A stretch of 62,732 bases of DNA. Origin: a virus. The position numbers and the translations under genes were made by a program. The notes under the pieces were generated by a model. That model was not told the DNA's origin, did no database searches, and saw only the letters and a program-made list of their open reading frames with translations. The DNA lies in the IMG/VR virus record IMGVR_UViG_3300047321_000416, positions 1-62,732 of that record. One strand, given 5' to 3'. Shown here in pieces: positions 4,201 to 59,362 of this stretch; within the stretch, counting starts at the first letter, position 1, and each line of letters opens with the position of its first letter.

Positions 4201-4559
4201 TCACTCGCTTCGCCGACGCGGTCGACCGCAAGCTCGACGCGATCAGTCCGAAGTCACGCGAGGAACTCAGCAAGGAGTTGTTTGCGAAGCAACAGCCGTT
4301 GCGCTCGAAGAAGGCCCGGTATTACGAGCGCGATGCGAATACGAAGTTCAAGATGATTGACGGCACAGTGTATGGCTGGCTCGATCGGAATCACGACGGC
4401 AAACACCTCGAGCTGCGAGTGGCACCGGGCATGTTTCCGAAGGGTCACGCGGGCAAGGTGTTGAAGAAGAAGTTTCGCCGGCTCCATCGTCAGGGCCATC
4501 ACTCAACGGGACACGCACTTGCATTACTTGGTCTATCAACGGCATCGTCGTCGCTATAA
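4173..4559 (+). CDS. Basic hypothetical protein
   Basis: 128 residues, strongly basic in the N-terminal half and around residues 80-105 (KKKFRRLHRQGHH). An AAGGAGG-like site lies just upstream of ATG 4173. The composition suggests nucleic-acid contact but no motif is recognisable. It contains an in-frame copy of the recurrent GAGTGGCACC element (4417-4426). Confidence 0.65.
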   Translation: MESKSGKSLITRFADAVDRKLDAISPKSREELSKELFAKQQPLRSKKARYYERDANTKFKMIDGTVYGWLDRNHDGKHLELRVAPGMFPKGHAGKVLKKKFRRLHRQGHHSTGHALALLGLSTASSSL

Positions 4560-36850: not shown

Positions 36851-36905
36851 ACGTTCGAAGCTCCCGGTGCGCGCCTAGAGCATTTGGTGACGCCAGAAAA
36901 GCGAT

Positions 36906-36935
36906 CCTCCGGGGCCAGTTGGGGTGCTCCGGAGG
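36906..36935. terminator. GC-rich stem-loop ending the late operon (candidate)
   Basis: CCTCCGG (36906-36912) pairs with CCGGAGG (36929-36935). No U run follows, so it may work as a pause or mRNA-end structure rather than a standard intrinsic terminator. Confidence 0.5.
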
Positions 36936-37194
36936 GTCGAAGCTCTACGAAACCCTTCGTATATCGAGGCTCAACTGGTCATACCAGTGCCCCACGTCGA
37001 AAGCCTCGAATCATCAATGAAATACGCATAAAAGCTCAATAGTGAGAAAACGTTAATGTTTTCCCAAATATGAGAAAAACCCTGTATTTACAAGGGTTAA
37101 ACGCGGTTTGTGATGCAAACTGTGCTGTTTTGACACACCAAAATAGTCTCTAAGGCCATGAAACTAAACGCCAAAATAAGTGGGCGCCCACACC

Positions 37195-37221
37195 TTGACA
37201 ACGCTCGAACCCTTGTATCAT
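37195..37221 (+). promoter_or_regulatory. Promoter candidate for the small-gene region
   Basis: TTGACA (37195-37200) and TATCAT (37216-37221) are separated by 15 bases, slightly short for sigma70, but both boxes match well and it follows the AT-rich gap. Confidence 0.45.
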
Positions 37222-37384
37222 TGCTTTACCGTTGGAGTGACGTGCATCGCGTCGCCCGTGCCCCAGAGCCGATTGCCAGAGGGCCAGTGCGTAAGACGTC
37301 GTGCCGCCCACGGGATTGAAACGTCACTCGAATGCGGAGCTGCTCAGCAGCGTTTGACAATTCATTGATGCATTGTTTGACGGG

Positions 37385-37415
37385 ACGTCATCACATCGCG
37401 TTCGCGTGATGACGT
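37385..37415. promoter_or_regulatory. Perfect 10-bp inverted repeat
   Basis: ACGTCATCAC (37385-37394) pairs with GTGATGACGT (37406-37415) around an 11-base loop. It could be a regulatory protein site or RNA structure; there is no U run for termination. Confidence 0.55.
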
Positions 37416-37880
37416 TGACCGCGGCCATGCTCCGCCCACTCATCGCGTCGAGTGGCACCGGACTTCGCCCGCGCACCGGAAAATGCATCGCATGCCCACA
37501 GCAAAAGTTTCCAGCAAACATCGCATCACATCGCACGTCGATTGCAATGCCCGTCGCAAGAGCGCTCAGCCGCCATCCGCGCAGTGCACAAGTCGCAATC
37601 GACAAACGATGAGCCCGCAAGGGGCTCGATGACACTGGAGCTGCCCAATCAGACCGGACCCGACCGGTGAGGACAGCACGCCGCGCAAGCGGCGTTGACC
37701 GATGCGACATCACGCTCAACACCGAAATCGACCCGCGCATGACACACCGTCGTGAACGACGCGAGTGGCACCGGGCCGAAGTCAGGGAAGAGCTCGATTG
37801 TGATGACGACGTGCTGCTGAGAACAGCGCGTCGTAAACACCCGCACTCATTCCGAGTGCGTGGGTTCAAAGGCCCAACAC

Positions 37881-38099
37881 ATGAAAACGACACGTCATGC
37901 ACGACTCGAACTTGCGTCGAAGCTCCGACGCTCGGCGCTCAAGGGGTTCACGGGTTCAGGGTATCGACTCGGACCGGCCATCGTGCAACAGCTGCTCGAC
38001 GCCGCGAACGACATTATGAAGAGCGTCGAGCGCGACGACTCGGCGTTCATCGACCGCGTCACTCAGTCAGCGTATCGTCACACCGCGTCACAGCGTTAA
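37881..38099 (+). CDS. Small basic hypothetical protein
   Basis: 72 residues from ATG 37881 with AAAGG nearby. Basic, helical (LASKLRRSALKGF). First clear gene of the dense small-gene region; no family recognised. Confidence 0.5.
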   Translation: MKTTRHARLELASKLRRSALKGFTGSGYRLGPAIVQQLLDAANDIMKSVERDDSAFIDRVTQSAYRHTASQR

Positions 38100-38149
38100 C
38101 CGCCACGCGAGTGGCACCGACCAACACGTCGTCAATTGGAGAGACCATC

Positions 38150-38470
38150 ATGCAAATCGACAAAGCGCGCCGCGTTCTTGACCAACAGCTCCGCAATGAA
38201 CTGAAAGCGCTCAAGACACATCGCTCCGACCTCGCGACGGCGAAGGACGACCTCAAGATTGCACAGGCTGAACTGGCCGATGCGAAGCGACTGCTCGGAC
38301 TCGCGAAAACAGAGGGCGTGAAATCGGCCCTGAAGGACTACATTTCGATGGAGTGCGACGTGGAATATTTCGAGGACGAAGTGAAAGAGCTCAAGAGCGA
38401 CATCGATGACTCCGAAGATAAAATCGACGAGCTCGAGGATGCCATCGACGCGAACGACGAACTCGACTGA
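38150..38470 (+). CDS. Coiled-coil protein
   Basis: 106 residues from ATG 38150 after TTGGAGAG. Nearly entirely an amphipathic, highly charged coiled coil with acidic C-terminal half. Likely a structural adaptor; no domain named. Confidence 0.7.
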   Translation: MQIDKARRVLDQQLRNELKALKTHRSDLATAKDDLKIAQAELADAKRLLGLAKTEGVKSALKDYISMECDVEYFEDEVKELKSDIDDSEDKIDELEDAIDANDELD

Positions 38471-38483
38471 CCAGCGCTGCACC

Positions 38484-38510
38484 GCCACCCGGGCATGTCG
38501 CTCGGGTGGC
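38484..38510. terminator. 10-bp hairpin that contains the recurrent element
   Basis: GCCACCCGGG (38484-38493) pairs with CTCGGGTGGC (38501-38510), one G-T wobble, 7-base loop. The right arm enters GGGTGGCACC at 38504-38513. No U run. Confidence 0.55.
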
Positions 38511-38539
38511 ACCGACCACTGACTTGATTGGAGCACGGC

Positions 38540-38779
38540 ATGCGATACTTGAACGTCACGCTCATCAGCACCTCGGGTTCACCGACGACGTGCCAAATCA
38601 TGGCGCACGAAAACGAAGGAGTGGCACCCGCCATCGACTGGATGGAAATGAAAATGGCGCAGAGCAAGAAGCAGTCGTGGGGTTACGTCGCGGCGTTCAT
38701 CTTCGACACGGGCAGTTGCAAGCTCATCACCTATAACATCAACCGCATGCGCGCTCGCATCGTGAAGGAGAGCAAATGA
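38540..38779 (+). CDS. Small hypothetical protein
   Basis: 79 residues from ATG 38540, TTGGAGCAC upstream. Mixed alpha/beta; contains an in-frame VAP version of the GAGTGGCACC element. Coupled by ATGA to the next gene. No family. Confidence 0.6.
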   Translation: MRYLNVTLISTSGSPTTCQIMAHENEGVAPAIDWMEMKMAQSKKQSWGYVAAFIFDTGSCKLITYNINRMRARIVKESK

Positions 38780-39042
38780 CACTCGAACGCATCATCGCCA
38801 TCGCCACGGCCTACGACCGACTCGGGAGCGCTGTGCAAGAGCAAGTGAAGGACGCGCTTCAGGGTCGACATGACGACTGCAACCCGAACGCGCTTCGACT
38901 TGTGCAGGGCTTTTTTCACCACGTGAAAGAGCACGCTGACGTGAACGGCGACGACGAGCTCATGGAGACGACGCAGGACGCGCTCGACGAGCTCACCGAC
39001 TACCTCGATGATGGCGGCGCACCGGCCGCACCCCGTCGTTAA
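38776..39042 (+). CDS. Small acidic helical protein
   Basis: 88 residues, ATGA-coupled. Acidic C-terminal half (DDELMETTQDALDELTDYLDDG). No recognised domain. Confidence 0.65.
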   Translation: MTLERIIAIATAYDRLGSAVQEQVKDALQGRHDDCNPNALRLVQGFFHHVKEHADVNGDDELMETTQDALDELTDYLDDGGAPAAPRR

Positions 39043-39068
39043 CCTCGTTTCAAGAATTGAGTGGCACC

Positions 39069-39512
39069 ATGAAAACGAATGAACTCCCGACCGGCGTGCT
39101 CAAGAGCGACCTCGCCCGACCCTCGTATGACTCGAGCGTGAAGCTCTACAAGGGCGAGAGCGGACACGATTACAATGAATCGCAGTTCGAGCTGTGGTTC
39201 ACGACCGGCTTTGGCTGGTGCATCCCGACGCTGAGCATCAGCCGCGCACGCCGCGCCAACACGACCGACCGGACGTATGCGGTGCGCGTCAAGGACGGCG
39301 CAGCGGTCCGCATCGGCAAGGGACCCCACGTCACCGAGTGTGTGACGGTCTACGTTCGCATGTCGAGGTTGAAGTCGCTCAAGCCGTTCCTCGAACTCCG
39401 GCTCAAGGGACAGGGCGACGCGGGACAGATTCGTGACCGCATCAGCAGCCGACGCGCTCAGGGTCAGGTGATGCGCGCTGAGGGTCGTTCGTCGTGGCGC
39501 TGGGACGTGTAA
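39069..39512 (+). CDS. Hypothetical protein
   Basis: 147 residues. The start codon comes immediately after GAGTGGCACC (39059-39068), showing this element may act in a leader. Body is beta-rich then basic at the C-terminus. Unknown function. Confidence 0.65.
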   Translation: MKTNELPTGVLKSDLARPSYDSSVKLYKGESGHDYNESQFELWFTTGFGWCIPTLSISRARRANTTDRTYAVRVKDGAAVRIGKGPHVTECVTVYVRMSRLKSLKPFLELRLKGQGDAGQIRDRISSRRAQGQVMRAEGRSSWRWDV

Positions 39513-39513
39513 C

Positions 39514-39744
39514 ATGGCTCGCATGAAAAGCATTCACGGTGAAGCTCACGGCTTTCAGGGTCACTCGATGCGCGTGAGTCGCAACGCGCTCCGAGCGAAT
39601 GGGCCGCTGTTCCCCAATCACACCGGCTTCAAAGAGCGCTGGAAGGACGTCAAGTGCAAGTGCGGTGCGCCAGCGACTCGGGTGGCACCGAGAGGACGGT
39701 TCGGAGCGTGGTGCACGAAGCATGCACCGGAAAGGTTAACATGA
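39514..39744 (+). CDS. Small zinc-binding-like protein
   Basis: 76 residues. KCKCGAPATRV and WCTKHAPERL give C-x-C and C-x-x-H ligands for one zinc. Basic N-terminus. One of many short zinc-ribbon genes here. Confidence 0.6.
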   Translation: MARMKSIHGEAHGFQGHSMRVSRNALRANGPLFPNHTGFKERWKDVKCKCGAPATRVAPRGRFGAWCTKHAPERLT

Positions 39745-39911
39745 CGCTCGCCGAGTTCACACGTCAACTCAATTTGCTCACTCACATCGTGGAGGCCAAC
39801 GGCAAAAGCACCGACGATATTCAAGTGGTGGTTCGCATCAATGACGACACGAGCTTTTACGTTGTGTCGCTCGGCACGGATGAAGATGGCGATGTCGCCA
39901 TCGATTACTGA
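39741..39911 (+). CDS. Small hypothetical protein
   Basis: 56 residues, ATGA overlap. Helix then beta hairpin (DIQVVVRINDDTSFYVVSL). No family. Confidence 0.6.
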   Translation: MTLAEFTRQLNLLTHIVEANGKSTDDIQVVVRINDDTSFYVVSLGTDEDGDVAIDY

Positions 39912-39923
39912 TTGGAGCATATC

Positions 39924-40181
39924 ATGTTGAAGAAAATCTGGACGCACATGACCGAGGGTTTCGCGGAACATTATTACAGCAACTGGTTCGGCTACAAACA
40001 CGAGCTCGGCGTGCGCTTCCCTCGCCTGCGCGCTCTGTGGGACACCATCGCAGTGCGAGTCGAAGCATTGCCTTGCACGATTCACGGGCATGCGCTCGAG
40101 AGCGTCGGAGCTGATGCGGAAAACGGGCGCGAGTTTCTCGAGTGCACGCGATGCGGCTGGTTCGAGCGCATCCAGTTCTGA
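39924..40181 (+). CDS. Small protein with zinc-ribbon end
   Basis: 85 residues from ATG 39924, TTGGAGCATATC upstream. Ends with CTRCGWFERIQF; an upstream CTIHGH could supply the other ligands. Function unknown. Confidence 0.6.
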   Translation: MLKKIWTHMTEGFAEHYYSNWFGYKHELGVRFPRLRALWDTIAVRVEALPCTIHGHALESVGADAENGREFLECTRCGWFERIQF

Positions 40182-40195
40182 AGGGTGAGGGGCGT

Positions 40196-40215
40196 CGAGT
40201 GGCACCGGCCACTCG
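40196..40215. terminator. 7-bp perfect hairpin formed by the recurrent element
   Basis: CGAGTGG (40196-40202), loop CACCGG, CCACTCG (40209-40215). GAGTGGCACC is the left arm plus most of the loop. Confidence 0.6.
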
Positions 40216-40294
40216 GCGTGAAACCCCGTGTTCGGTCCCAACGCCGGACGGGTCGATGCGCCATTCCGGTGCATCGCGTTAGGAGGTTATCACA

Positions 40295-40534
40295 ATGAAC
40301 GTCACCAAGGTGCTCGCGCTTCTCGACTCCGCCGTCAAGGAAATCGAAGTGGTCTACGACGGCGCCATCGCGGCTGGCAAGAAGGACCCCATTCAGCTGA
40401 ACGGGCTCCAGTCGCTCGGCAAGGCGAACCAGGCCATCGAGAAGGCGAAGGACCGCCTCGCCGCGGCCATCGACAAGACGACGCCGAAGGTCAAGGAGGC
40501 GAAGGCCGAGAAGACGGTCGCTGCCAAGAAGTAG
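40295..40534 (+). CDS. Ala/Lys-rich helical protein
   Basis: 79 residues with a strong AGGAGG site. Acidic first half, then Ala/Lys-rich tail (VKEAKAEKTVAAKK), resembling histone-like or DNA-binding tails. No recognised domain. Confidence 0.65.
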   Translation: MNVTKVLALLDSAVKEIEVVYDGAIAAGKKDPIQLNGLQSLGKANQAIEKAKDRLAAAIDKTTPKVKEAKAEKTVAAKK

Positions 40535-40550
40535 TTCGGTCGCACTCAAG

Positions 40551-40574
40551 CTCGGGTGGCACCGGCCACCCGGG
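40551..40574. terminator. Hairpin with GGGTGGCACC element
   Basis: CTCGGGTGG (40551-40559), loop CACCGG, CCACCCGGG (40566-40574), with one G-T wobble. Same loop as the hairpin at 40196 but different stem sequence, so the loop and core are kept while the stem co-varies. Confidence 0.6.
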
Positions 40575-40654
40575 CAACCCTCGCAAAGTCCGCGTATGCG
40601 GCCCGTTGGTCTGCCGGAAAGCAGACGACTATGGGTTGAAAGGACCCTGACACC

Positions 40655-41290
40655 ATGGCATACAATCGTTTTCGTCGGCGTCGATTCCACGCCGGCGGGA
40701 CAAGCTCACCAGTGAAGAAGAGCGAGGGCATTCAAGCGGGACGGCGGAGCAAGTGCGCCGGCTGCGGGTTGCACATCGACCTCGGTGACCCGTTCACTCG
40801 ACTGCGTCTGAAGAAGGCGTATCGATTCCCGTGTGTGACGTGCGCGGCCAAACCGAAAGGGTCGAAGCGCTTTCACGTCGCATGCTTGCCGAGCGACTGG
40901 AACAAAGCGATGGGGTATGACCCCGCCGCTCACGTGCATCAAACGGTGTCGTGTGTGAATTGCTCGTTCACACAGAGCACGCCGTTCGGGAAGCACTGCC
41001 CGAATTGCGGCGAGCGACCCGACACCCGCAAGTCGGCCGGTGGAGCAGTGGCACCGCCTCCGAAGCCGAAGAGCGCATCGGAACTGTCCGTCGCGGCGAT
41101 ACTCGCGCTCGAGGGTGCGCTCAACGCGCAACTCCGGGAGCGAAGCAAAGTGCGAACGCCTGAACTGGAGAGCGAGTTCAAGAAGCTCCAGGGCATCAAG
41201 GCGCGCATCGTTCGACCCGGAACTCAGGGTGAAGAGCAAGCCGCGACCGTCGTCGCCATTCAGCGCCTCGTGAAACTGGTCTGGTCGTAA
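40655..41290 (+). CDS. Multi-zinc-ribbon protein
   Basis: 211 residues. CAGCGLHI/CVTCAAKP and later CVNCSF/CPNCGERP make two zinc ribbons, the last a typical rubredoxin-like knuckle; a basic start and a helical C-terminus follow. DNA- or RNA-binding is likely, partner unknown. Confidence 0.75.
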   Translation: MAYNRFRRRRFHAGGTSSPVKKSEGIQAGRRSKCAGCGLHIDLGDPFTRLRLKKAYRFPCVTCAAKPKGSKRFHVACLPSDWNKAMGYDPAAHVHQTVSCVNCSFTQSTPFGKHCPNCGERPDTRKSAGGAVAPPPKPKSASELSVAAILALEGALNAQLRERSKVRTPELESEFKKLQGIKARIVRPGTQGEEQAATVVAIQRLVKLVWS

Positions 41291-41316
41291 ACAACCGATT
41301 GAGTGTGGAGCACATC

Positions 41317-42093
41317 ATGTCAAACGAACTTGTCCGCCGTCAGCTTGAATCGTCCCTCGAAGTCAAGTCGCTGTCCGAGCTCGAGCGTGCCTCCGAGATC
41401 ATCATGTTGCTCATCGACACGTCGGGGTCGATGGGGGAATATCTCGACAACGCATCGCACCAGCGCTACATGGACGCCGTGTTCGCTCGCAGCGTGACGA
41501 ACCCCGTCGCGCTGTCGCCCGCGCAGTTCGGCGGTCGTGCGATTGACAAGCTGCGCGAAGCGGTCAACCAGATTCAGTCATCGGCGACCGAAGCGATTCC
41601 GATGATTGCGTTCGGCGGACCCTACGACGCGCAGGTGCGGTTCGTCGATGTCGTCCCCGAGCCGGACGGTGGCACCCCGTTGCACCTCGCGATTCCGCTC
41701 GCGAAGGAATACGGCGCGACCCGACTCGTCGTCGTCTCGGACGGCTCGCCCGACCTGCGCGACCAGTCGATGAGTGAAGCTCGCGCGTTCGGCGGGCGCA
41801 TCGATGTCGTGTTCGTCGGCAAGCCGGGTGATGGCGGTGCGCTCTACTTGAAGGCGCTCGCCGCGGCGACGGGTGGCACCATGCTCCAGGGCGACCTAAG
41901 CGAGGTGAAGAAGATCGCGTCGGTCATCATTGGGCTGCTCGAGGGCGATGTCGCACCGAGCACCGGACGGGTCTTCGCGACCGACGCGAGCGGTGGTGCG
42001 ACGGCACAGGACGCACCGGAACCGGTCGAGCCGGAAGACGATGACGACGAGGACGACGATGACGAGGAGGACGACGATGACGACGACGAATAG
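41317..42093 (+). CDS. von Willebrand factor A (vWA) domain protein
   Basis: 258 residues from ATG 41317. MIDAS motif DTSGSMG at 34-40, distal acidic/Thr elements (GGTPLHLA, SDGSPD), typical vWA. An extremely acidic tail (DDDDEDDDDEE...) ends it. vWA proteins often act with an AAA ATPase, but none is next to it; here it precedes an HExxH peptidase. Possible complex-assembly or host-interaction role. Confidence 0.85.
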   Translation: MSNELVRRQLESSLEVKSLSELERASEIIMLLIDTSGSMGEYLDNASHQRYMDAVFARSVTNPVALSPAQFGGRAIDKLREAVNQIQSSATEAIPMIAFGGPYDAQVRFVDVVPEPDGGTPLHLAIPLAKEYGATRLVVVSDGSPDLRDQSMSEARAFGGRIDVVFVGKPGDGGALYLKALAAATGGTMLQGDLSEVKKIASVIIGLLEGDVAPSTGRVFATDASGGATAQDAPEPVEPEDDDDEDDDDEEDDDDDDE

Positions 42094-42194
42094 CGAGTGG
42101 CTGATGGACGACGCTGGTCGGCGCATTGCGCCGGCCAGCTCGAATCGAGTGGCACCGGCCCCAACCATGTTTGACCAATTGATGGAGCGTAAAC

Positions 42195-42695
42195 ATGACG
42201 GACAACTCACACGAAAGCACGGCGCGTATCGCTCGCTACGCACAGCATATCACACAGCTCGCGCGAGCATTCAACGTCAAGCTCGTCGTCGAGCCGCAAC
42301 TGCGGCCTGACCAAGCCGGCGCTGGCTTTATGATGACGAAGGACGGCGTGCTCCTCAAGAACAAGCCGTTCATTCGCGTCCTGCCGGTGACCGACGAGAC
42401 ATCGTATGCCGCACCGCTCCATGAAATGGGGCACATGCTGCATCCGACTGGACACCTGACCGACCAAGCGAGCAAGACGTTTCGCGACTCGGTGCAAACG
42501 GCCGGCATTCACCATGCGGTATTTGCCGACTTTCGTGATGTGCGACTGCTGCTCGAGAGCGAACGCAGCGCCTGGGAATGGGCGAAGCAATACGCGCTCG
42601 AGTGGACGCCGACGATGGACGCCGTGCGCGTGATGTGCATGAAGTCCTACATTCACATCGCGAAGCGCGTCGGACTCAAAGGAGAGTGGCTATGA
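42195..42695 (+). CDS. HExxH metallopeptidase, ImmA/IrrE-like
   Basis: 166 residues. HEMGH at 76-80 is the zinc-binding active site, preceded by a beta strand as in ImmA/IrrE proteins, which cleave repressors or inhibitors in other phage-host systems. No HTH domain is attached. The target is unknown. Confidence 0.75.
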   Translation: MTDNSHESTARIARYAQHITQLARAFNVKLVVEPQLRPDQAGAGFMMTKDGVLLKNKPFIRVLPVTDETSYAAPLHEMGHMLHPTGHLTDQASKTFRDSVQTAGIHHAVFADFRDVRLLLESERSAWEWAKQYALEWTPTMDAVRVMCMKSYIHIAKRVGLKGEWL

Positions 42696-42946
42696 TTGTG
42701 AGCATTACGTTCGAGCCGCGGAACATCGCGGACGTCGTGCGCGAGGACACCGGTGAAGTCATTTTCACCGCGGCGAGCATCACTCGCCGTCATCACTTGC
42801 TGGGGCTGCGTGGCACCCGGCTCAAGGGCATCTTGCTCTACTCAGGCGACGAGCTGCTCGAGAGGGCGGTTCAGTGGTGCGCTCAGCGCGGGTTCACCGT
42901 GGAAGTCGTGAACGTCATGGACGAAGGAGAGGACTATGGACACTAG
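42692..42946 (+). CDS. Small hypothetical protein
   Basis: 84 residues, ATGA-type overlap and AAGGAGAG site. Mixed strands and one helix. No family. Confidence 0.6.
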   Translation: MIVSITFEPRNIADVVREDTGEVIFTAASITRRHHLLGLRGTRLKGILLYSGDELLERAVQWCAQRGFTVEVVNVMDEGEDYGH

Positions 42947-43859
42947 AAAATATCGACCGATGCTTGCGGAGAAGATGGACGTGCTCATCAAGCGACCCGT
43001 CAGCGATTGGAACGAATGGGTCGCCGAAGAAAAGTACGACGGCCATCGCTCTATCATCGAAGTGAGTGGTGAGGGCGCATTTCGTGCTATCGCGGCCTAC
43101 AATCGTCCGCGCAAGGCGAGCAAGGACACGATGACGTTCCGAGCGTTGCCGCATCACCTCGTGGAGTCGCTCGCACTGCTGCCCGCCGGCATTTACGATG
43201 GCGAGCTCATGGCTGGCGATACGGCGACCGACGTCAAGCGCCTGGACCTCGAGTCCGAGCGCTTCATCACGCTGTTCGATGTGCTCCGCGTGAACGAGGA
43301 AGACGTGATGACCATGACGACGGAGCAGCGGCGCGATGCACTCGATATGTGTCACGCCATCATGCTCGCGCAAGGCGGGAACGGTGCACACGTCAAGCTG
43401 TCGCAGCGATTCCGGCTGCTCAGCGAACAGACCATCATGCAGCTCGCGAAGAAAGTGTGGGCGCGTGGTGGGGAGGGACTGATTCTGAAGCGGCGTGCTG
43501 CGACGTATCAGTCGAACAAGCGCTCGAACGATTGGGTGAAAATCAAACGTCTCGAGCACTTCACACTCACGGTGACCGGGTTCGAAGCGACTCGTGGCAC
43601 CGTGCTCAAGCGTGGGCCGTTCGCCATCGTGCATCTCATCGATGACGACGGGAAAGAGACGCGCTGCAAGACGAAGGACGACTTCGAGCTCGCACGCCTG
43701 GAGAGGGCGTGGGACAACCGGTTGGCTACGCATAAGAACAACGATCCGCAGACGGGTCACCCCTGGGTCGGTCGGAAGCTCGTCATCGAGTGCGGCGGTC
43801 GCACACGCGACGGCGGTTACAAAGGTCCCGTGATTTGGGACCGCTGGGAGAACGAGTAA
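42936..43859 (+). CDS. ATP-dependent DNA ligase
   Basis: 307 residues. Nucleotidyltransferase motif I is EKYDGHR with catalytic Lys33; IYDGELM is motif III and GGEGLILKRR motif IV, then a small OB-like end (KIKRLEHFTLTVTG, motif V). A compact phage-type ligase sealing nicks during replication or repair. Confidence 0.9.
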   Translation: MDTRKYRPMLAEKMDVLIKRPVSDWNEWVAEEKYDGHRSIIEVSGEGAFRAIAAYNRPRKASKDTMTFRALPHHLVESLALLPAGIYDGELMAGDTATDVKRLDLESERFITLFDVLRVNEEDVMTMTTEQRRDALDMCHAIMLAQGGNGAHVKLSQRFRLLSEQTIMQLAKKVWARGGEGLILKRRAATYQSNKRSNDWVKIKRLEHFTLTVTGFEATRGTVLKRGPFAIVHLIDDDGKETRCKTKDDFELARLERAWDNRLATHKNNDPQTGHPWVGRKLVIECGGRTRDGGYKGPVIWDRWENE

Positions 43860-44116
43860 TGAAGCACATCCTGTTTACGACGACGCGCTCACGTGCGCGT
43901 GCCTTCGCTGACTCGATGCAGCATGAGCACGTGTCATACACACCCGAGGGCCAGTTAGTGCTGGCCTTCCTCAAAGACCTCGAGCGTGCGCTGGCGCGCT
44001 GCCCCGAGGAACCCGAAGTGCTGGAAGGCGAACTTGTCTGCGAGCATGAGTGGCAGGAACAGCCTGGCGAACCGCCAGTCGACACATGCTCGCGATGCGG
44101 TGAGGTGAGAGAATGA
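43859..44116 (+). CDS. Small zinc-ribbon protein
   Basis: 85 residues, TAATG start. C-terminal CEHEW...CSRCGEVRE suggests one zinc site. Acidic middle (CPEEPEVLEGELV). Unknown function. Confidence 0.6.
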   Translation: MKHILFTTTRSRARAFADSMQHEHVSYTPEGQLVLAFLKDLERALARCPEEPEVLEGELVCEHEWQEQPGEPPVDTCSRCGEVRE

Positions 44117-44271
44117 CTCCGAGAGAGCGTGACGCAATTGAGCGCGTCGAAGACCCGGACGAATGGGAAATCGACGCTATGATGGCCGAGCGTGAACGCG
44201 ATGAAGACGACGGCCGCACTTATTCGGACCCGCGTGATGAACGCGATGAGAGGCTGTATGACTCAGACTGA
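44113..44271 (+). CDS. Small acidic/arginine-rich protein
   Basis: 52 residues, ATGA overlap and end overlapping the next ATG by 14 bp. Alternating Asp/Glu/Arg composition, predicted disordered/helical. Too short to assign. Confidence 0.55.
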   Translation: MTPRERDAIERVEDPDEWEIDAMMAERERDEDDGRTYSDPRDERDERLYDSD

Positions 44272-44500
44272 AGCGATTCGTGCGTTGACGATTATCATGG
44301 GCGGGCGGCGACCGGCATCGGCCGACAGCTGCACCGGCGTAGCAACCACATGCGACAACGATGAGTGCCTCGTCTGCGGGACCCGCGACTGTCCCGACCA
44401 CGAGCCGCTGCACTACCATCACGACGGCTGCCCGGCGTGTGACGCCGGCATCGATGTCCGCGTGAGCGGACGCGGCAACGACGACACGACTGACCGTTAA
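44258..44500 (+). CDS. Small zinc-binding protein
   Basis: 80 residues from ATG 44258. CLVCGTRDCPDHEP and DGCPACDAG motifs with multiple Cys/His. Possibly two metal sites. No known family. Confidence 0.6.
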   Translation: MTQTEAIRALTIIMGGRRPASADSCTGVATTCDNDECLVCGTRDCPDHEPLHYHHDGCPACDAGIDVRVSGRGNDDTTDR

Positions 44501-44526
44501 CTCGTTTTTGATTGAGGAGTGGCACC

Positions 44527-45123
44527 ATGGCACAAGACAAATACTACGAAGACATGATTGCTCGTCACGCCTACCCCGCGACTATCGCACCGGCCATCAA
44601 GCGCGTGATGGCTGTCAAGCTGCACGAGCTCTATCAAGTGCACCGCGACGAACAGGAAGTGCTCATGAACCAGCATCGCACGGGTCCCTGGGTGACCAAC
44701 GACGGCTCGACAATGGTCGAGGTGAAAATCGAAGACCTGCCGGCGGACATCGCGTCCAAAATCGCTCGCGTGCAAGTGATGACGACGCACATCGACCAGC
44801 TGCTCGGTGAAGTGCGGGACGCTGGCTTCAAGTATACCGGCGGACAGCCGGTTTACAAGAAGGGCACGGTCGAGGACGGGCTCAAGCTGAAGGCGCACCA
44901 GCAAGCGGAGATGAACGCGCTCAACGTTCGTCACAAGGCTGAAACCGCCGAGTTCTTCGACCTCGTGCTCGAACTCGGCAAGGTCCAGATCAAGAAAGTC
45001 ATCGAGGCGATTCCGGAAGAGCTCCGGGCGCGTATCGAGAGCATCGGCACACCGCTGCTCGCGAGTGGCACCGAGGCGCCGGCGCTCGAGTCCGCTCACG
45101 ATGAATACGGGTCTCGCACGTGA
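44527..45123 (+). CDS. Helical hypothetical protein
   Basis: 198 residues; ATG directly after GAGTGGCACC (44517-44526) with GAGG just upstream. Two long helices. Ends with the same SGTE peptide made by another copy of the element (45063). Unknown function. Confidence 0.65.
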   Translation: MAQDKYYEDMIARHAYPATIAPAIKRVMAVKLHELYQVHRDEQEVLMNQHRTGPWVTNDGSTMVEVKIEDLPADIASKIARVQVMTTHIDQLLGEVRDAGFKYTGGQPVYKKGTVEDGLKLKAHQQAEMNALNVRHKAETAEFFDLVLELGKVQIKKVIEAIPEELRARIESIGTPLLASGTEAPALESAHDEYGSRT

Positions 45124-45356
45124 GATGGCTGCTCACGTGTGGCATACTCGGAACATTCGGCGACGCGCTGGCCCACGTGGTGGGTCGGCGCGCTTGCTGG
45201 CCCAAGGAACAGCACATGTCCAAGGGCGCAGCTGAAGCTCAGATGCGGAGCATCACGCGACGTGAGCTCGAGAAAGACATCTCGCGTATTCACGTCTATC
45301 CATGCCCAGAGTGTTCGCGGCATTACCAGCGAAAAGTCTGGCACGTCGGCCATTGA
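45120..45356 (+). CDS. Small zinc-binding-like protein
   Basis: 78 residues from GTG 45120, or 46 from ATG 45216, which has AAGGAAC upstream. CPECSRHYQRKVWHVGH gives a C-x-x-C/H-type site. The start is undecided. Confidence 0.5.
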   Translation: MRWLLTCGILGTFGDALAHVVGRRACWPKEQHMSKGAAEAQMRSITRRELEKDISRIHVYPCPECSRHYQRKVWHVGH

Positions 45357-45379
45357 AACGTCAACCAAGAGGTGATACG

Positions 45380-45631
45380 ATGCACAATTCCATGGTCATA
45401 TGCCCCCGATGCGGGGAACCGATGCACGTCGGACCTGTGAAAGTTGAGCAGCGTATCACCTTCGCTGTGACGTGTTTTTCTTGCCCTCTCATATCCGAGC
45501 TCGAGACTTCGTATCCCGCGAAGCTTCGTGACCTCGGACGCATGACGTATCGTGAGGCCGAGGAATACGGCGTGTCGATGACGCCGCTCACTCGGACAGC
45601 AACTCCACTCTCACTCAAAGGAGAATCGTAA
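45380..45631 (+). CDS. Small zinc-ribbon protein
   Basis: 83 residues, AAGAGGTGAT site. CPRCGEPM and CFSCPL motifs, one zinc ribbon. Ends in TAATGG with the next gene. Confidence 0.65.
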   Translation: MHNSMVICPRCGEPMHVGPVKVEQRITFAVTCFSCPLISELETSYPAKLRDLGRMTYREAEEYGVSMTPLTRTATPLSLKGES

Positions 45632-45963
45632 TGGGTCGAATGACGCTCATCTGCAAGGATTGTGGCGACCAGTATGGACGCTGGCGTCCGCGCTGCCCCG
45701 CGTGCGGCACAGTGAACCCGGAGCCGGAACAAGAGGCGCTCGAGGTGATGTCGAGGCAAGAGCGTTCGAAGGTCCGCAAGTTTCCGGTGGCACCGAAGGC
45801 ACCCAAGCTCGTCAAGAAACCCTGTCACGTCTGCGGACTCGGCGGGGCGAAGAACCTGTGTCTCGTCTGCGGCTTCGTGATGCACAAGAGCTGCCGGTCG
45901 ATACACGAACTCCGATGCAAGTTCACCGTGACTGGAGGGCATGATGGCGCTGCTCACGTGTAA
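45631..45963 (+). CDS. Double zinc-ribbon protein
   Basis: 110 residues. CKDCGDQ/CPACGTV and CHVCGLG/CLVCGF/CRSIHELRC. At least two zinc sites, B-box-like second part. Nucleic-acid or protein adaptor role inferred. Confidence 0.7.
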   Translation: MGRMTLICKDCGDQYGRWRPRCPACGTVNPEPEQEALEVMSRQERSKVRKFPVAPKAPKLVKKPCHVCGLGGAKNLCLVCGFVMHKSCRSIHELRCKFTVTGGHDGAAHV

Positions 45964-46243
45964 GTGCTCCGCAACGGTCCGCGTGCCATCGCTGCCCACA
46001 TCGCGTTTGCGGTGTGGGTCGTGCAAGCATGTCTTCACAATTCCGGAGCTCGTCAAAGCGCGGCCTGAACCGCCGCCTGCGAAGCCGGAACCTGGCGCCT
46101 TCAACCTCGAACGTCAACTCGACCTTCAAGGAGAAATCAACAGTGGAAAATGTCCCGATTGTCACGGTGCGCTTCGCGACGACGGTTACTGCGTCAAGTG
46201 CGGTGAGTTCTGGGAAGCGAACGAAGAGGAAGACGTTGAGTGA
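45944..46243 (+). CDS. Double zinc-ribbon protein
   Basis: 99 residues from ATG 45944 (GGAGGG site); ATG 45941 also possible. MALLTCKCSATVRVPS...CGSCKHVF and CPDCHGALRDDGYCVKCG. Overlaps the previous gene by 20 bp. Unknown function. Confidence 0.65.
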   Translation: MALLTCKCSATVRVPSLPTSRLRCGSCKHVFTIPELVKARPEPPPAKPEPGAFNLERQLDLQGEINSGKCPDCHGALRDDGYCVKCGEFWEANEEEDVE

Positions 46244-46364
46244 GCGGTGGCACCGGCTTGAACAGCTGTTCTGTCGTCACGACTATCTCCGAGCCTTCGA
46301 CAACCGCTGGATGGGCCTGCGCTGTGCGAAGTGTGAGAAGAGAACGGCTGGCTTCACCGTATGA
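46236..46364 (+). CDS. Tiny zinc-ribbon protein
   Basis: 42 codons from TTG 46236, overlapping the previous stop. ERWHRLEQLFCRHDY, then MGLRCAKCEKRTAG: Cys/His pattern of a mini zinc ribbon. GTGGCACC here reads WH. The TTG start is inferred; ends in ATGA-like overlap with the glycosyltransferase. Confidence 0.5.
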   Translation: MSERWHRLEQLFCRHDYLRAFDNRWMGLRCAKCEKRTAGFTV

Positions 46365-47371
46365 AGGCCTGCTTCATCATTCCGGCATTCAACGAAGCAA
46401 AGCACATTCAGCGCACGGTCCTCTCAGCGAGACGCGCTGGCGCCGGTGGCCACATTTATGTGGTCGACGACGGGTCAACGGACCGCACGGCTGAACTAGC
46501 AACGGGTGCGTTCGCGCAGGTGCTCTCGATTGGCAATCAGGGCAAAGCGAGGGCACTCCAAGCGGGCATCAAGCACTTCAACCTGCTCGAGCGATACGAT
46601 TGGATCGGCGTGCTTGACGCCGACAGTCAACTCGACCAACATTACCTCATGGCGATGGACTGCGGCGCGAAGAGGTATCCGGACGCGAGCATACTGTGCG
46701 GCGCTCCGCGCAGCGCACCGGCGAACTGGCTGACGGCGTATCGAGCCGTCGAGTATGCCATGTCGCTCGGCATTTATCGGGAAGCTCAGCATATGATCGG
46801 CACCATCAATGTCGCACCCGGGTGCGCGTCGATGTATCGCTCCGAACTCATGCAGCTGCTCGACTTCTCGGAGGACACGCTCGTCGAGGACATGGATTTG
46901 ACGATTCAAGCTCAGCGCATGGGTCGTCAGATTGTCTTCTTGCCCGATGCGCGTGTCGTCACACAAGACCCGCGCACGATGCGCGGTTACATCGGACAAG
47001 TGGCGCGATGGTATCGTGGAACGTTTCAAGTGATTCGCAAGCACAAGATTGGCCGCAAACCGCGGCTCATCGACTTGGAAATCATTTCATTGATGACCGA
47101 CGCGCTGCTCTTTGTCGTCACACTGCTTGCGCTACCGTGGCTCGGGTGGCACCATCCACTCGCGCTTGCAGTCGGCGTGCTGCTCGACCAAACCGTGATG
47201 TTCGTCTTCACGGTCCTCGTCGCTCGACGTGAGAGACGGCTCGACGTCCTCTGGGCGTTCCCGCTATTTCTCATCCCTCGCTTGGCCAGCGCTGCGGTAT
47301 TCGGCTGGGCCTTCGTGACCACACGGCGACAGTCACGAGTCGGCTCTTGGTATCATGTCGCCCGTTATTAG
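46361..47371 (+). CDS. Membrane GT2 glycosyltransferase, processive type
   Basis: 336 residues. VVDDGST (34-40), DADS (86-89), EDMD (176-179) and QVARW (213-217, the Q/R-x-x-R-W motif) are the set found in processive polysaccharide synthases of GT2. Three hydrophobic helices after residue 240 would anchor it in the inner membrane. A phage making or altering a surface polysaccharide could use it to alter the host coat. Confidence 0.85.
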   Translation: MKACFIIPAFNEAKHIQRTVLSARRAGAGGHIYVVDDGSTDRTAELATGAFAQVLSIGNQGKARALQAGIKHFNLLERYDWIGVLDADSQLDQHYLMAMDCGAKRYPDASILCGAPRSAPANWLTAYRAVEYAMSLGIYREAQHMIGTINVAPGCASMYRSELMQLLDFSEDTLVEDMDLTIQAQRMGRQIVFLPDARVVTQDPRTMRGYIGQVARWYRGTFQVIRKHKIGRKPRLIDLEIISLMTDALLFVVTLLALPWLGWHHPLALAVGVLLDQTVMFVFTVLVARRERRLDVLWAFPLFLIPRLASAAVFGWAFVTTRRQSRVGSWYHVARY

Positions 47372-47382
47372 TGGAGAGTGAA

Positions 47383-47817
47383 ATGAAGCTCAATCGTTTG
47401 GTCATCGTCGCATTCGTGCTCGCCGTGGTCTGCACTGCTCGCTTTGCGAGCGCTCAGAGCGGCGTCTACTATCCCGGTTCTGCGTGGACCGCGAACGGCA
47501 CACTGTCCCCGGTGGAGAAGGGCAACGTCATCTCGCTGACTCATGCGGAACAGGGCATCGCGCTGCGCGGTGTCGAGGTGTTCGGACAAACCACGTTCAG
47601 CATCGATTCGAAGCACTTCGACTGGGACCGTCGCTTCCTGAACGGCGGCGGAATCCGGTTTACGCAGACGGTGCCGCACGGCATGGTTCGAGTGTCGGAG
47701 TCGTTCGTTCGTGAGCGGCGTTACAATGGTGATGTGACGCACCAGGGCTTCGTGTTCGCCGCGGAAGCGTGGTTCGGGTGGAATCACGCTCCACAGCCCC
47801 GTTCAATCACCAAGTAG
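47383..47817 (+). CDS. Exported protein
   Basis: 144 residues, strong TGGAGAG site. Signal peptide ending FASA-QS (Ala-x-Ala). The mature part is beta-rich with many aromatic residues. Periplasmic or outer membrane; function unknown. Confidence 0.65.
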   Translation: MKLNRLVIVAFVLAVVCTARFASAQSGVYYPGSAWTANGTLSPVEKGNVISLTHAEQGIALRGVEVFGQTTFSIDSKHFDWDRRFLNGGGIRFTQTVPHGMVRVSESFVRERRYNGDVTHQGFVFAAEAWFGWNHAPQPRSITK

Positions 47818-47840
47818 TTCATTCAAGAAAGAGAAGCATC

Positions 47841-47927
47841 ATGTATCTTCCTCCGTTTGGTCTCGGACAGGCGGCGCGACTCGCGCTCGCCGGTCTCTCA
47901 CAGCTCGGTCGTCTCTTCGGTCGTTAG
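47841..47927 (+). CDS. 28-residue small peptide
   Basis: Starts ATG 47841 with AAAGAGAAG. Sequence opens MYLPPFGLGQAARLALAG, then LSQLGRLFGR: amphipathic helix with Pro at start. Too short for tracks; could be a small membrane-active peptide or leader. A terminator follows. Confidence 0.45.
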   Translation: MYLPPFGLGQAARLALAGLSQLGRLFGR

Positions 47928-47936
47928 GCGTTAACC

Positions 47937-47966
47937 GGCCCGGTGTCGAGTGGCACCGGGCCTTTT
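47937..47966 (+). terminator. Rho-independent terminator incorporating GAGTGGCACC
   Basis: GGCCCGGTG (47937-47945) pairs with CACCGGGCC (47954-47962) followed by TTTT. The element GAGTGGCACC spans the loop and right stem. Best example showing that some copies sit in a terminator. Confidence 0.8.
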
Positions 47967-47980
47967 CAGGAGAAGAAAGA

Positions 47981-48290
47981 ATGAGAACACTCTACGGTCT
48001 ACTCGTCGCGTTCGCGCTCATGTTCGTGATGCTGCTGATTCCCTCGATTGCCAGCGCAAAAGATCAGTGCACCGATTCGTGGTCGTGGTATTTCAGAGAC
48101 AGTCAGAGCGCCGCGATGTATGGTGATCTGATTCAGGGTGCTGCGGACCGAATCGCGGCTGATCAGGCGAATGGAGACCTGATGCTCATCGATGGCGAGC
48201 AAGCGAACATGGCCTTTCTATCAGGAAAACTTGGACTACGTGAACGGCCTCATCAGCATGGACGTCGCTGCGATTCAGGCCTACTGCTAG
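47981..48290 (+). pseudogene. Exported protein with apparent frameshift
   Basis: ATG 47981, AGGAGAAG site. Signal peptide with IASAK-type cleavage, then CTDSWSWYFRD. The 0 frame runs to 48349 but loses sense after codon 79. Skipping one base at about 48218 gives YQENLDYVNGLISMDVAA, ending at TAG 48288 with YC, which would pair with the N-terminal Cys. So one inserted base (real or sequencing error) probably broke a 102-residue gene. Confidence 0.6.
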
Positions 48291-48300
48291 TGCTCAACAT

Positions 48301-48326
48301 CGCCCACGATCTTCGGGTCGTGGGCG
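48301..48326 (+). terminator. 9-bp hairpin terminator (candidate)
   Basis: CGCCCACGA (48301-48309), loop TCTTCGGG, TCGTGGGCG (48318-48326). Followed by ACCCTT, a poor U run. Placed between the exported-protein gene and the next promoter. Confidence 0.6.
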
Positions 48327-48345
48327 ACCCTTCCCAACATTACCC

Positions 48346-48375
48346 TTGACACGACCTTCCCACCTGTCGTATCGT
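48346..48375 (+). promoter_or_regulatory. Sigma70-like promoter for the replication/modification operon
   Basis: TTGACA (48346-48351), 18-base spacer, TATCGT (48370-48375). It follows a terminator and leads into the AGAGGT ribosome site of the gene at 48416. Confidence 0.6.
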
Positions 48376-48415
48376 CCCTCATTCACCTTTCCCAAACAAT
48401 CATCTCAGAGGTCTC

Positions 48416-49294
48416 ATGACGCTCAAAGGTATCAGCATCAAAGAGGGCCAAGCAGGTGTCCTCGAGCTCGACGGCACACTTGTCTACGTCGAGTCCATCA
48501 CTCCGGTTTGCGCGTGCGTCGTCGCACTGCCCGACCAGCCCACCACTCGAAACGTCACGCCGAGCTTCACGCCCGGCCGTGTCGGCACCAAGAAGATCTC
48601 GCCGTTCATGAAGTTCGCCGTCGAGGTTGCGCCCGCCGATCTCACCGAGCGTAATCAGAACTTCGTCAAGAACTACCAGACATGGCGAGTCGAGAAGCCC
48701 GAAGGCATCAACTTCATCGAACGCACGCCCGAGGAACAGGCAGCTGCCGAAGCCGCGGCGAACGTGCCCTCGAAGGAAGCTCAGAAGGCCCAGAAGAAGC
48801 GCGAGAAAGAGGAGTTCAAGGAGAAGCGCAAGGCGCTCAAGGTCACGCCGCGATACCTCCAGCGCTGCGTCACCTGCAAGGAGCAGCCGGGACATCCGGA
48901 CCACGGCACTGGGGACGGTAAACACGAGTTCGTGTCGCCGCCGGTCGAAGCGGTCGAGGCGAGTGGCACCGAACCGAAAGCGCCGAAGCCCGAACGGGTC
49001 AAGATCAAAAACGGAGCTCGGACGGCTGGCGTCACGGGCGGTCCCTACAAGTGGGTCGGCACAGCGGACCAGCTCGTCGTGCTCGCCGGCGCGAACCCGA
49101 AATACGGCGAGGGCAACTCGGGGCGCTTCATGGTCGACTTCATCGGCGAGTGCGGAGAGGCCGGCGCAACGCCCGACCAAATCGTGACGGAGCTCGCGCA
49201 GCATCCGCGCTGGGGCAAGATTTCCCGCGAACGCATCGAACTCGCGATCAAGCAGCTCGTCTCGAGCGGACTCATCGTGACGGTGACGCCGTAA
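48416..49294 (+). CDS. Hypothetical DNA-metabolism protein with C-terminal winged-helix-like end
   Basis: 292 residues. An N-terminal beta domain, a charged coiled coil (residues about 105-140), a CVTCKEQPGHPDH zinc-like motif, and a C-terminal helix-turn-helix-like segment (ATPDQIVTELAQHP...RERIELAIKQLVSSG). First gene of the operon. Might be a regulator or replication factor. Confidence 0.6.
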   Translation: MTLKGISIKEGQAGVLELDGTLVYVESITPVCACVVALPDQPTTRNVTPSFTPGRVGTKKISPFMKFAVEVAPADLTERNQNFVKNYQTWRVEKPEGINFIERTPEEQAAAEAAANVPSKEAQKAQKKREKEEFKEKRKALKVTPRYLQRCVTCKEQPGHPDHGTGDGKHEFVSPPVEAVEASGTEPKAPKPERVKIKNGARTAGVTGGPYKWVGTADQLVVLAGANPKYGEGNSGRFMVDFIGECGEAGATPDQIVTELAQHPRWGKISRERIELAIKQLVSSGLIVTVTP

Positions 49295-53122: not shown

Positions 53123-53572
53123 ATGAACGAGCGTCAACTCGAGAAGGCGTGTCACGATGTGCTGCGGGCGAAGCTCACGCCGATGCCGCTGCTCTGGCAC
53201 ATCAACGACCAAATCACCGGCGGACAGCCCGACACTGAGGTGGTCTGGAACGGCCACACGACGAAGATCGAGTTCAAGAAGCTTCGCGGTTCGCAGAACA
53301 TCCATCACGTCTGGGAGGACGGCCGACAGCTCATCACTTGTGTGAAGTATGAGCGTGCATCCGGCGGCCGTTGCTGGATTGTCGCGTATAGCGAAAAGGC
53401 GAAGCTCACGCTGATTTATCGGCCGAGCGCGCTGCTCGACAAAAAGATTCCCGTGCCGGCCAACAAGACGATGAACTTCGAACTGTTGTGGAATCGCGGC
53501 GCGCTTCAGATTGATGGAATTAGCGAGGGTCATATCGCCGTCGCTGAGCTCATTCGGGAGACGCACAAGTGA
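53123..53572 (+). CDS. VRR-NUC/PD-(D/E)XK nuclease-like
   Basis: 149 residues. GGQPDTEVVWNG...KIEFKKLRG provides G-x-P-D and E-x-K: the PD-(D/E)XK core of VRR-NUC-type resolvase/nucleases. Coupled by ATGA-like overlap to the methyltransferase. Confidence 0.75.
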   Translation: MNERQLEKACHDVLRAKLTPMPLLWHINDQITGGQPDTEVVWNGHTTKIEFKKLRGSQNIHHVWEDGRQLITCVKYERASGGRCWIVAYSEKAKLTLIYRPSALLDKKIPVPANKTMNFELLWNRGALQIDGISEGHIAVAELIRETHK

Positions 53573-54861
53573 AGACGCTCATTCTCAACACGTATGCCGG
53601 CTCGCTGCTCCTTGGCGCGAACGCCATCAAGGGCAGTCAGGTGACGGGCAGCTATGAAGACTGCGGGTTCGGCGCGCAGATTACGCGAGCGAACCTCGCA
53701 CGCTTCAACGAGCTCGATCCGGACTTCAAGTTCATCGACCAGATCAAGCAATGGCCCGACCAGGACTTATCCGACACGGTTGTCCTCGCGCATCCGCCGT
53801 GCTCGGCATTCTCGCAGCAGAACACCTCGGCCGCCAAGCGAGGGACGGGCAGTGCTGCGTTCGATTGCACGAGGAAAGTCATTCGCTACGCGTTTGCCAA
53901 CAACGCGGCGGCACTCGCGGTCGAGAGCGTCATGGGCGCACTCGGCGGAGCTTGGGATGAGCACAACGACCTCGCTGACGCCGGCGGGTATCACATCTAC
54001 CGCGTGCTGAAGAACTCGATTCTGTTCGGCGTGCCGCAGTATCGTGAGCGATTCTGGTGTCTGTTCGTGCGAAAGGGTCTCGCCAATCCCTCGCTGCAAC
54101 TGAAGCTCTCGCCGCGCTTTGTCACAATTGGCGCCGTGTTGGACCCGGTGACACCGGGCGATTGCATTCCGGGCGATCCGAATCGGACCGTCTCGCGCTT
54201 CGTGAAATACCTGACGACGGGACCGTGCCGCTGCGGCGAAAAGATGGACCCGCCTCAGGACATCGTGCATGGCTTTGATGAAGCGGAGGTGCGACGTGTC
54301 GGTCTCGAAGCGTCGGAAACCGAACTCAAGTTCAAACGAATCGGGTTCGCGAAGCTCATTCAACCGAGGTTCTTCCCGACGGAAGACTCCAAGAGCGTTA
54401 TCAAGCGACATGTCTCGCCATTTACATCAGCGCAACCATCCGTGCTCGCTCCCTTTGGATATGCACCCGTCCTTCTGGGAACCTCCCTGTGGGTTTACAA
54501 GGGCGCCGTGGTCACCGCTGCTGGCTACAAAGCAATCATGGGATTCCCCACGGATTATATTTTCCCGCACGATCCCGCTCACGGAGTCCGCACTTTCCTC
54601 AGTAAGGGCGTTTGTCCGCCGGTCGCCGAATGGATTCTTGACTCGCTCCGTCAGCACCTTGGAGAGGCGCAGGGTTCGCCCTTGACAAACACCAACGGGT
54701 ATCATAAGGTGGTTGAACCAGGGAAGATCGCTTCGTTCCGGCCGAGCAAGACCGACATCCTACGGAAATACGAAACCATGTGGCAGCTCGGGTCGCCCGA
54801 AGACGACGAGCCGATTCCGCTGCGCTCCGATGACGAAGGCGACGAAGACCAGGAGGATTGA
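53569..54861 (+). CDS. DNA cytosine-5 methyltransferase-like
   Basis: 430 residues. PPCSAFS (76-82, catalytic Cys78), AVESV (motif VI), QYRERFW (157-163, motif VIII) in the order of C5-methyltransferases. Motif I is degenerate. Might methylate host-type sites or, given its neighbours, modify or protect phage cytosines. Confidence 0.82.
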   Translation: MKTLILNTYAGSLLLGANAIKGSQVTGSYEDCGFGAQITRANLARFNELDPDFKFIDQIKQWPDQDLSDTVVLAHPPCSAFSQQNTSAAKRGTGSAAFDCTRKVIRYAFANNAAALAVESVMGALGGAWDEHNDLADAGGYHIYRVLKNSILFGVPQYRERFWCLFVRKGLANPSLQLKLSPRFVTIGAVLDPVTPGDCIPGDPNRTVSRFVKYLTTGPCRCGEKMDPPQDIVHGFDEAEVRRVGLEASETELKFKRIGFAKLIQPRFFPTEDSKSVIKRHVSPFTSAQPSVLAPFGYAPVLLGTSLWVYKGAVVTAAGYKAIMGFPTDYIFPHDPAHGVRTFLSKGVCPPVAEWILDSLRQHLGEAQGSPLTNTNGYHKVVEPGKIASFRPSKTDILRKYETMWQLGSPEDDEPIPLRSDDEGDEDQED

Positions 54862-59047: not shown

Positions 59048-59362
59048 ATGGAATGGTTCCTGTGGGCGCTCAGTTTGGTGATGACCCAGTTCTTCGGGAC
59101 GCTCACTTCACGAGCCCGTAATACAAGCTCATACGCTTACCATGGTGTGTGCGCGGCTTTGAATCACGGCTCTTGGCTGGTTGCTCAGACCTTCCTCGTA
59201 ACGGTCGCGGTCAAGAACCTTCACGATCCGCGGCAATTCGTTCAAGCTCTTATCTTCTATACCGGCGTGTCTACAGCGAGCTCAATATTCGCCCACGTCG
59301 TATCCATCAACTACTTCGAAAAAGGCAAACGGCGCGTCGGCGCATACGGAGACTCAAAATGA
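59048..59362 (+). CDS. Membrane protein
   Basis: 104 residues. Three or four hydrophobic segments (FLWALSLVMTQFFG, SWLVAQTFLVTVAVK, VQALIFYTGVSTASSIFA). Has SRARNTSSYAYHG, reminiscent of a widespread phage membrane protein of unknown function. Holin role cannot be excluded. Confidence 0.65.
   Translation: MEWFLWALSLVMTQFFGTLTSRARNTSSYAYHGVCAALNHGSWLVAQTFLVTVAVKNLHDPRQFVQALIFYTGVSTASSIFAHVVSINYFEKGKRRVGAYGDSK

What the first reader, a model, noticed from the sequence alone, without database searches (positions are those of the whole stretch)
37450..48970. GAGTGGCACC: a strongly overrepresented, strand-specific 10-bp element
Seen: 16 exact copies on the + strand (4417, 4615, 14305, 22881, 37450, 37763, 38109, 38619, 39059, 40197, 42147, 44517, 45063, 47948, 48961, 61173), 11 of them in 11.5 kb. 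GTGGCACC occurs about 30 times where chance on one strand gives about 1. I found no exact reverse-complement copy by eye. Copies encode SGT, VAP or EWH in different frames, lie between genes, or directly precede an ATG (39059, 44517), so selection acts on DNA or RNA, not protein. Known parallels: mycobacteriophage L5 stoperators, Chi sites, phage intergenic boxes. It lacks the -12 TTGC of sigma54 promoters. Inference: a regulator or recombination signal unique to this phage group.
Basis: partly seen in the sequence, partly recalled or inferred. Interest (0 to 1): 0.9.

Follow-up and report, generated by a model that had tools for sequence, protein, structure and literature searches.

The report
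One-strand GTGGCACC sites, likely phage nicks
A complete but otherwise unknown phage genome carries 30 identical copies of an 8-letter DNA word on one strand, about one per gene in its presumed early gene block, a pattern that most resembles the programmed single-strand cuts known from a few other phages, whose purpose has been a puzzle for fifty years.

Summary
GAGTGGCACC occurs 16 times on the + strand, at every listed coordinate, and never on the other. The true unit is the octamer GTGGCACC: 30 copies on +, 1 on −, about 1–2 expected. It is the most over-represented 8-mer in the window. It is sharp: its 24 one-base variants total 20 copies. Shuffling synonymous codons gives about 3 coding copies, against 17 observed. 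Twenty-two copies lie in 11.5 kb directly after a 1-kb non-coding leader, about one per gene, thinning out downstream and enriched between genes (8 of 20 against 7% expected).

No close relative, host clade or known motif shares it. Host Chi, sigma54 and the known L5-type stoperator motif and repressor are not supported.

The best match is the single-strand-interruption (nick) sites of phages tf and LUZ24. The same scan recovers those as the top one-strand word, with similar sharpness, even spacing and thinning from the early end. The motif differs and no nick has been shown.

The main rival is an early-operon regulatory element, stoperator-like or read in RNA, favoured by the intergenic enrichment. 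Verdict: a real, unusual element; probably a new variant of a known but unexplained kind.

The parts
37452..48970 (+). Dense array: 22 of the 30 GTGGCACC copies, at 37452, 37765, 38111, 38506, 38621, 39061, 39682, 40199, 40556, 41048, 41669, 41873, 42149, 42810, 43594, 44519, 45065, 45787, 46247, 47146, 47950, 48963
4419..4426 (+). Outlying copy in coding sequence; others outside the array at 4617, 14307, 22688, 22883, 26885, 51494, 61175
39059..39071 (+). Decamer copy abutting the ATG of ORF 39069-39512
44517..44529 (+). Decamer copy abutting the ATG of ORF 44527-45123
36851..37880 (+). Non-coding leader between the last late gene and the first small early gene; holds the first two copies; presumed early control region. 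A TTGACA/TATCAT pair near 37197 was seen by eye only; its spacer is 15 nt and the promoter scan did not report it
37881..49294 (+). About 24 mostly small ORFs, nearly all without family matches; presumed early operon; 17 of 24 gene units hold exactly one copy
42936..43859 (+). ATP-dependent DNA ligase (phrog_114), which could reseal nicks; itself holds a copy at 43594
53159..53572 (+). Small PD-(D/E)XK-like nuclease candidate (phrog_2165); the only endonuclease-like protein noticed; its homologues occur in phages without the octamer, so a weak nickase candidate
53569..54861 (+). C5-type DNA methyltransferase next to the nuclease candidate

Best explanation
GTGGCACC (preferred context CGA-GTGGCACC-G) is the recognition site of a strand-specific nicking activity. 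It would produce programmed, ligatable single-strand interruptions in the + strand of the virion DNA, concentrated in the first-transcribed part of the genome, as in Pseudomonas phages tf and LUZ24. The phage's own DNA ligase would reseal them after infection. Shown: the number, strand, sharpness and layout of the sites, and the presence of a ligase gene. Inferred: that the sites are cut, the enzyme (unidentified) and the biological use. For the known nicked phages the use is itself unknown; packaging, recombination and defence evasion have been proposed.
For: 30:1 strand ratio. The octamer is as sharp as an enzyme site: 30 copies against 20 for all 24 one-base variants together. Positive control: the same blind scan of tf and LUZ24 returns their nick motif as the top one-strand word, all copies on one strand. 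Copies per one-base variant: window 1.43, tf 0.92-1.33, LUZ24 0.54-0.78, top words of the other phages scanned 0.16-0.64. Even spacing: local variation Lv 0.22 here; 0.30, 0.20, 0.19 and 0.31 in tf, LUZ24, PaP3 and phiMR299-2; 0.75-1.23 for Trixie stoperators. Spacing grows with distance from the early end: rho 0.75 here, 0.78 in tf, 0.67 in LUZ24. In tf, 10 of 14 nicks lie in the first 16 kb, behind a ~1.1-kb non-coding leader, and three touch a start codon; here the leader is 1.03 kb and two copies abut an ATG. Nick motifs lie inside and outside genes (PMC11780129). An ATP-dependent DNA ligase is encoded, as in phiKMV.
Against: No nick has been observed; this is argument by resemblance. The motif is unrelated to the known nick motifs. 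No clear nickase gene was found. Copies are enriched between genes (8 of 20 against 7.2%, P = 4e-5), whereas in 61 related nicked Pseudomonas phages 12% of motifs are non-coding, no enrichment (PMC11780129). Even spacing is weak evidence, because gene starts in the same region are equally regular (Lv 0.25). With all genes on +, strand bias relative to the genome and relative to transcription cannot be separated.
Confidence: 0.44

Rival explanations
1. A regulatory element of the early operon acting on transcription or RNA, about one per gene: an orientation-dependent roadblock bound by a protein (stoperator-like), or an RNA signal for antitermination, processing or stability.
For: 22 of 30 copies lie in the presumed early operon, thinning downstream of the leader. 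17 of 24 gene units hold exactly one copy, against 7.9 expected at random and 12.5 when the observed spacing is slid along the region. Copies are enriched in gene gaps. About 30 sites is also the number of stoperators in cluster A phages, which likewise follow the direction of transcription (PMC6550527). Four intergenic copies lie in local hairpins, 47950 in a terminator-like one.
Against: More than half of the copies lie inside genes, while Trixie stoperators lie mostly in gene gaps and are degenerate. No repressor, integrase or ParA family was found. Structure is not general: mean folding z is -0.5 for intergenic and -0.1 for coding copies. Complete absence of degenerate copies is unusual for a protein-binding or RNA site. 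No -10-like or other element lies at a fixed distance.
Confidence: 0.36
2. A Chi-like or other polar recombination or replication signal of the host or phage.
For: Non-palindromic, exact, one-strand octamer, as for E. coli Chi (established knowledge).
Against: A scan of one genome for each of 84,980 species for decamer pairs gave 27 scattered hits and no enriched clade. Copies cluster in 11.5 kb instead of covering the replicon. With E. coli polarity (established knowledge), RecBCD entering from the leader side would read the other strand.
Confidence: 0.06
3. By-product of codon usage, protein repeats or tandem duplication.
For: Coding copies fall mostly in two frames (VAP, xGT).
Against: 11 copies are intergenic, the codon shuffle gives about 3, and flanks are not conserved beyond a few bases. 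Other phages with strand-biased words found in the same scans had tandem arrays; this is not one.
Confidence: 0.02

Closest known systems
Localized single-strand interruptions of Pseudomonas phages tf, LUZ24, PaP3 and Rembedalsseter (TACT/RTGMC, WACTRTGAC)
   Same: Short exact non-palindromic word on one strand only, in and between genes, at some start codons, densest at the early end, evenly spaced and thinning.
   Different: Different sequence; 30 instead of 8-14 sites; denser (one per ~0.5 kb); enriched in gene gaps; different phage lineage; nicks not demonstrated.
Nicks of phiKMV-like phages (CGACN5CCTACTCCGG) and T5 (RGCGCRGG)
   Same: Strand-specific site-directed nicks; phiKMV also encodes an ATP-dependent DNA ligase.
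   Different: Few sites (3 motif copies in phiKMV; five major nicks in T5) and unrelated motifs.
Stoperators of cluster A mycobacteriophages (L5, Trixie)
   Same: Asymmetric, about 30 copies, oriented with transcription.
   Different: 13 bp, degenerate, mostly in gene gaps, spread over the genome, with a dedicated repressor and lysogeny genes.
Chi sites
   Same: Exact, polar octamer.
   Different: No host clade enriched; clustered in one operon.

Membership tests
Phage localized single-strand interruption (nick) sites | A nick with 3'-OH and 5'-P at the motif in virion DNA | not testable with these tools
   Needs native DNA or strand-specific reads.
Phage localized single-strand interruption (nick) sites | Exact short motif confined to one strand of the genome | tested here: met
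   30:1 and sharp.
Phage localized single-strand interruption (nick) sites | Uneven distribution, densest at the early end | tested here: met
   22 of 30 in 11.5 kb after the leader; spacing gradient as in tf and LUZ24.
Phage localized single-strand interruption (nick) sites | One of the published nick motifs | tested here: not met
   TACTRTGMC 0/0, CGACN5CCTACTCCGG 0/0, RGCGCRGG 13/8 without strand bias. Motifs differ between known groups, so this excludes membership in those groups only.
Phage localized single-strand interruption (nick) sites | A phage nickase gene | tested here: inconclusive
   No HNH or GIY-YIG pattern or family; one PD-(D/E)XK-like candidate. The enzyme is not named for tf in PMC3517423 either.
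L5-type stoperators | 13-bp GGTGGMTGTCAAG-like site | tested here: not met
   0/0 for the consensus.
L5-type stoperators | Dedicated repressor and lysogeny genes | tested here: not met
   No repressor, integrase or ParA family among the proteins scanned.
L5-type stoperators | Sites in short intergenic gaps | tested here: inconclusive
   11 of 30 intergenic: enriched, but most copies are coding.
Host Chi site | Over-representation in the host genome | tested here: inconclusive
   No species group enriched in decamer pairs, but the host itself is unknown.
Sigma54 promoter | TTGC 5 nt after TGGCAC | tested here: not met
   1 of 30.

The most novel reading that the evidence does not exclude
A new class of per-gene, orientation-dependent control element that tiles the early operon of a lytic phage with one invariant octamer per gene, read by an unknown phage protein either on DNA (as a roadblock) or on the nascent transcript.
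Probability: 0.3. Interest if true: 0.75.

Novelty: new variant of a known kind. Interest (0 to 1): 0.58.

Why it matters
If these are nick sites, programmed nicking has arisen with a new motif in another phage lineage, at twice the known number of sites, and in a layout shared with tf and LUZ24: one strand, evenly spaced, thinning from the early end. That layout constrains why phages nick their DNA, a question open for fifty years, and offers a purely computational way to find more nicked phages. If they are regulatory instead, an invariant octamer in most early gene units would be a new control device.

Tried and rejected
Co-varying motif in relatives: apparent strand-biased words in G007 and G010 were tandem repeats; other relatives showed none as strong or as sharp. 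Viral-contig scans for motif pairs found only a 100% identical fragment of the same phage; the other hits were repeats or chance. Protein searches found no relative above about 45% identity. Rfam: none. Common RNA hairpin: not general. Structure prediction of two orphan proteins without an alignment was uninformative. Even spacing, first taken as strong evidence, was downgraded because gene starts are just as regular. The octamer and its decamer forms are not in the held papers except for one unrelated plant paper. Records for L5 and Bxb1 were not held, so Trixie served as the stoperator control.

Full report
1. Observation. The decamer GAGTGGCACC occurs 16 times on + and never on −. The invariant unit is the octamer GTGGCACC: 30 on +, 1 on −. 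Markov models of order 1 to 4 expect 0.9 to 2.4 copies; it is the most over-represented 8-mer in the window. All 30 occurrences of TGGCACC are preceded by G. One-base variants are at background (20 in all for 24 variants), and flanks contribute only a weak C-G-A before and G after. Shuffling synonymous codons leaves a mean of 2.9 coding copies, maximum 9 in 300 trials, against 17. A contig filed under another IMG/VR sample number is 100% identical over 4,769 bases and contains three of the copies.

2. Setting. The window is a virus record. Its last 71 bases equal 211-281, and joining them keeps an ORF open, so it is in effect a complete circular map of about 62,451 bp. Genes called here are all on +. 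They include terminase, portal, primase, family A DNA polymerase, thymidylate synthase, helicase, an ATP-dependent DNA ligase and glycosyltransferases. The gene set recalls Mesyanzhinovviridae, but the matches found stay below about 45% identity, so it is an orphan lineage; its host is unknown. The late genes end at 36850. A 1.03-kb non-coding leader follows, then about 24 mostly small orphan ORFs to 49.3 kb, presumed early genes by position. Twenty-two copies lie in 37452-48963, starting inside the leader.

3. Layout. The copies are evenly spaced (Lv 0.22 against 1 for random, P < 5e-5) and the spacing grows downstream (rho 0.75). Of 24 gene units 17 hold exactly one copy; random placement gives 7.9, and sliding the observed pattern gives 12.5, with 17 reached or exceeded in 1.4% of slides. 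In 37881-49000, 8 of 20 copies are intergenic where 7.2% is non-coding (P = 4e-5). Coding copies are scattered along genes in more than one frame. Two copies abut an ATG. Caution: gene starts in the same stretch are equally regular (Lv 0.25), so even spacing may only mean one site per gene.

4. Comparison with known systems by the same scan. In phage tf and in LUZ24 the top one-strand 8-mers are those of the published nick motif, with zero copies on the other strand (PMC3517423). Sharpness, spacing regularity and the thinning gradient match the window. tf also has an about 1.1-kb leader, its densest sites at the early end, and three sites touching start codons. A 2025 nanopore study found 13 such nicks in phage Rembedalsseter, and 60 related phages enriched in the motif (PMC11780129). 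Trixie stoperators, in contrast, are degenerate, lie mostly in gene gaps, occur over the whole genome and are not evenly spaced. No repressor, integrase or ParA was found. The 27 genome hits for the decamer pair are scattered, against a host Chi site. Sigma54 spacing fails.

5. Mechanism. The best-supported reading is a strand-specific nickase site, giving programmed interruptions in the + strand of packaged DNA that the phage ligase could reseal. The layout and the ligase gene are shown; cutting, enzyme and purpose are inferred. The only endonuclease-like gene noticed, 53159-53572, carries a conserved G-x-PD...(E)xK pattern, but its homologues occur in phages without the octamer, so it is a weak candidate. 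The chief rival is a regulatory element of the early operon. It is favoured by the intergenic enrichment, which the nicked Pseudomonas phages do not show, and by the near one-per-gene count. The two cannot be separated here because all genes are on one strand and no relative shares the motif.

6. Verdict. The element is real, is shared by nothing else found here, and most resembles a known but unexplained phenomenon.

Noticed in passing
window 62662-62732 and 211-281: The last 71 bases repeat bases 211-281, and an ORF reads through the join: the map closes to a circle of about 62,451 bp, and bases 1-210 are an alternative branch, perhaps a strain variant.
   Followed up: yes
window 53159-54861: A small PD-(D/E)XK-like nuclease (phrog_2165, filed as helicase) directly precedes a C5 DNA methyltransferase.
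   Followed up: partly
L029 (Bordetella phage CN1), e.g. 2794-2825, 8693-8723, 29173-29203; also L030 (Sphaerotilus phage SN1): Tandem elements TTTACTTCTTCGG...CTATACTTCTTC, 23-24 bases apart, often just upstream of genes: probably phage-specific promoters of Mesyanzhinovviridae.
   Followed up: no
L001 4109, 4625, 5033, 11841: Four copies of a ~50-bp element AAAAATAATTGAAAATAAACCTTGCTTTCTTTCT... in a distant relative of the window phage, promoter-like.
   Followed up: no
window 59359-59634: Small protein with a weak cold-shock-domain match (PF00313, E 7e-4, below the curated cut-off), a possible single-strand nucleic-acid binder.
   Followed up: no
window 40199 and 40556: Two intergenic copies sit in perfect hairpins CGAGTGG-CACCGG-CCACTCG and CGGGTGG-CACCGG-CCACCCG that differ by a compensated base pair; 47950 sits in a terminator-like hairpin.
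   Followed up: partly
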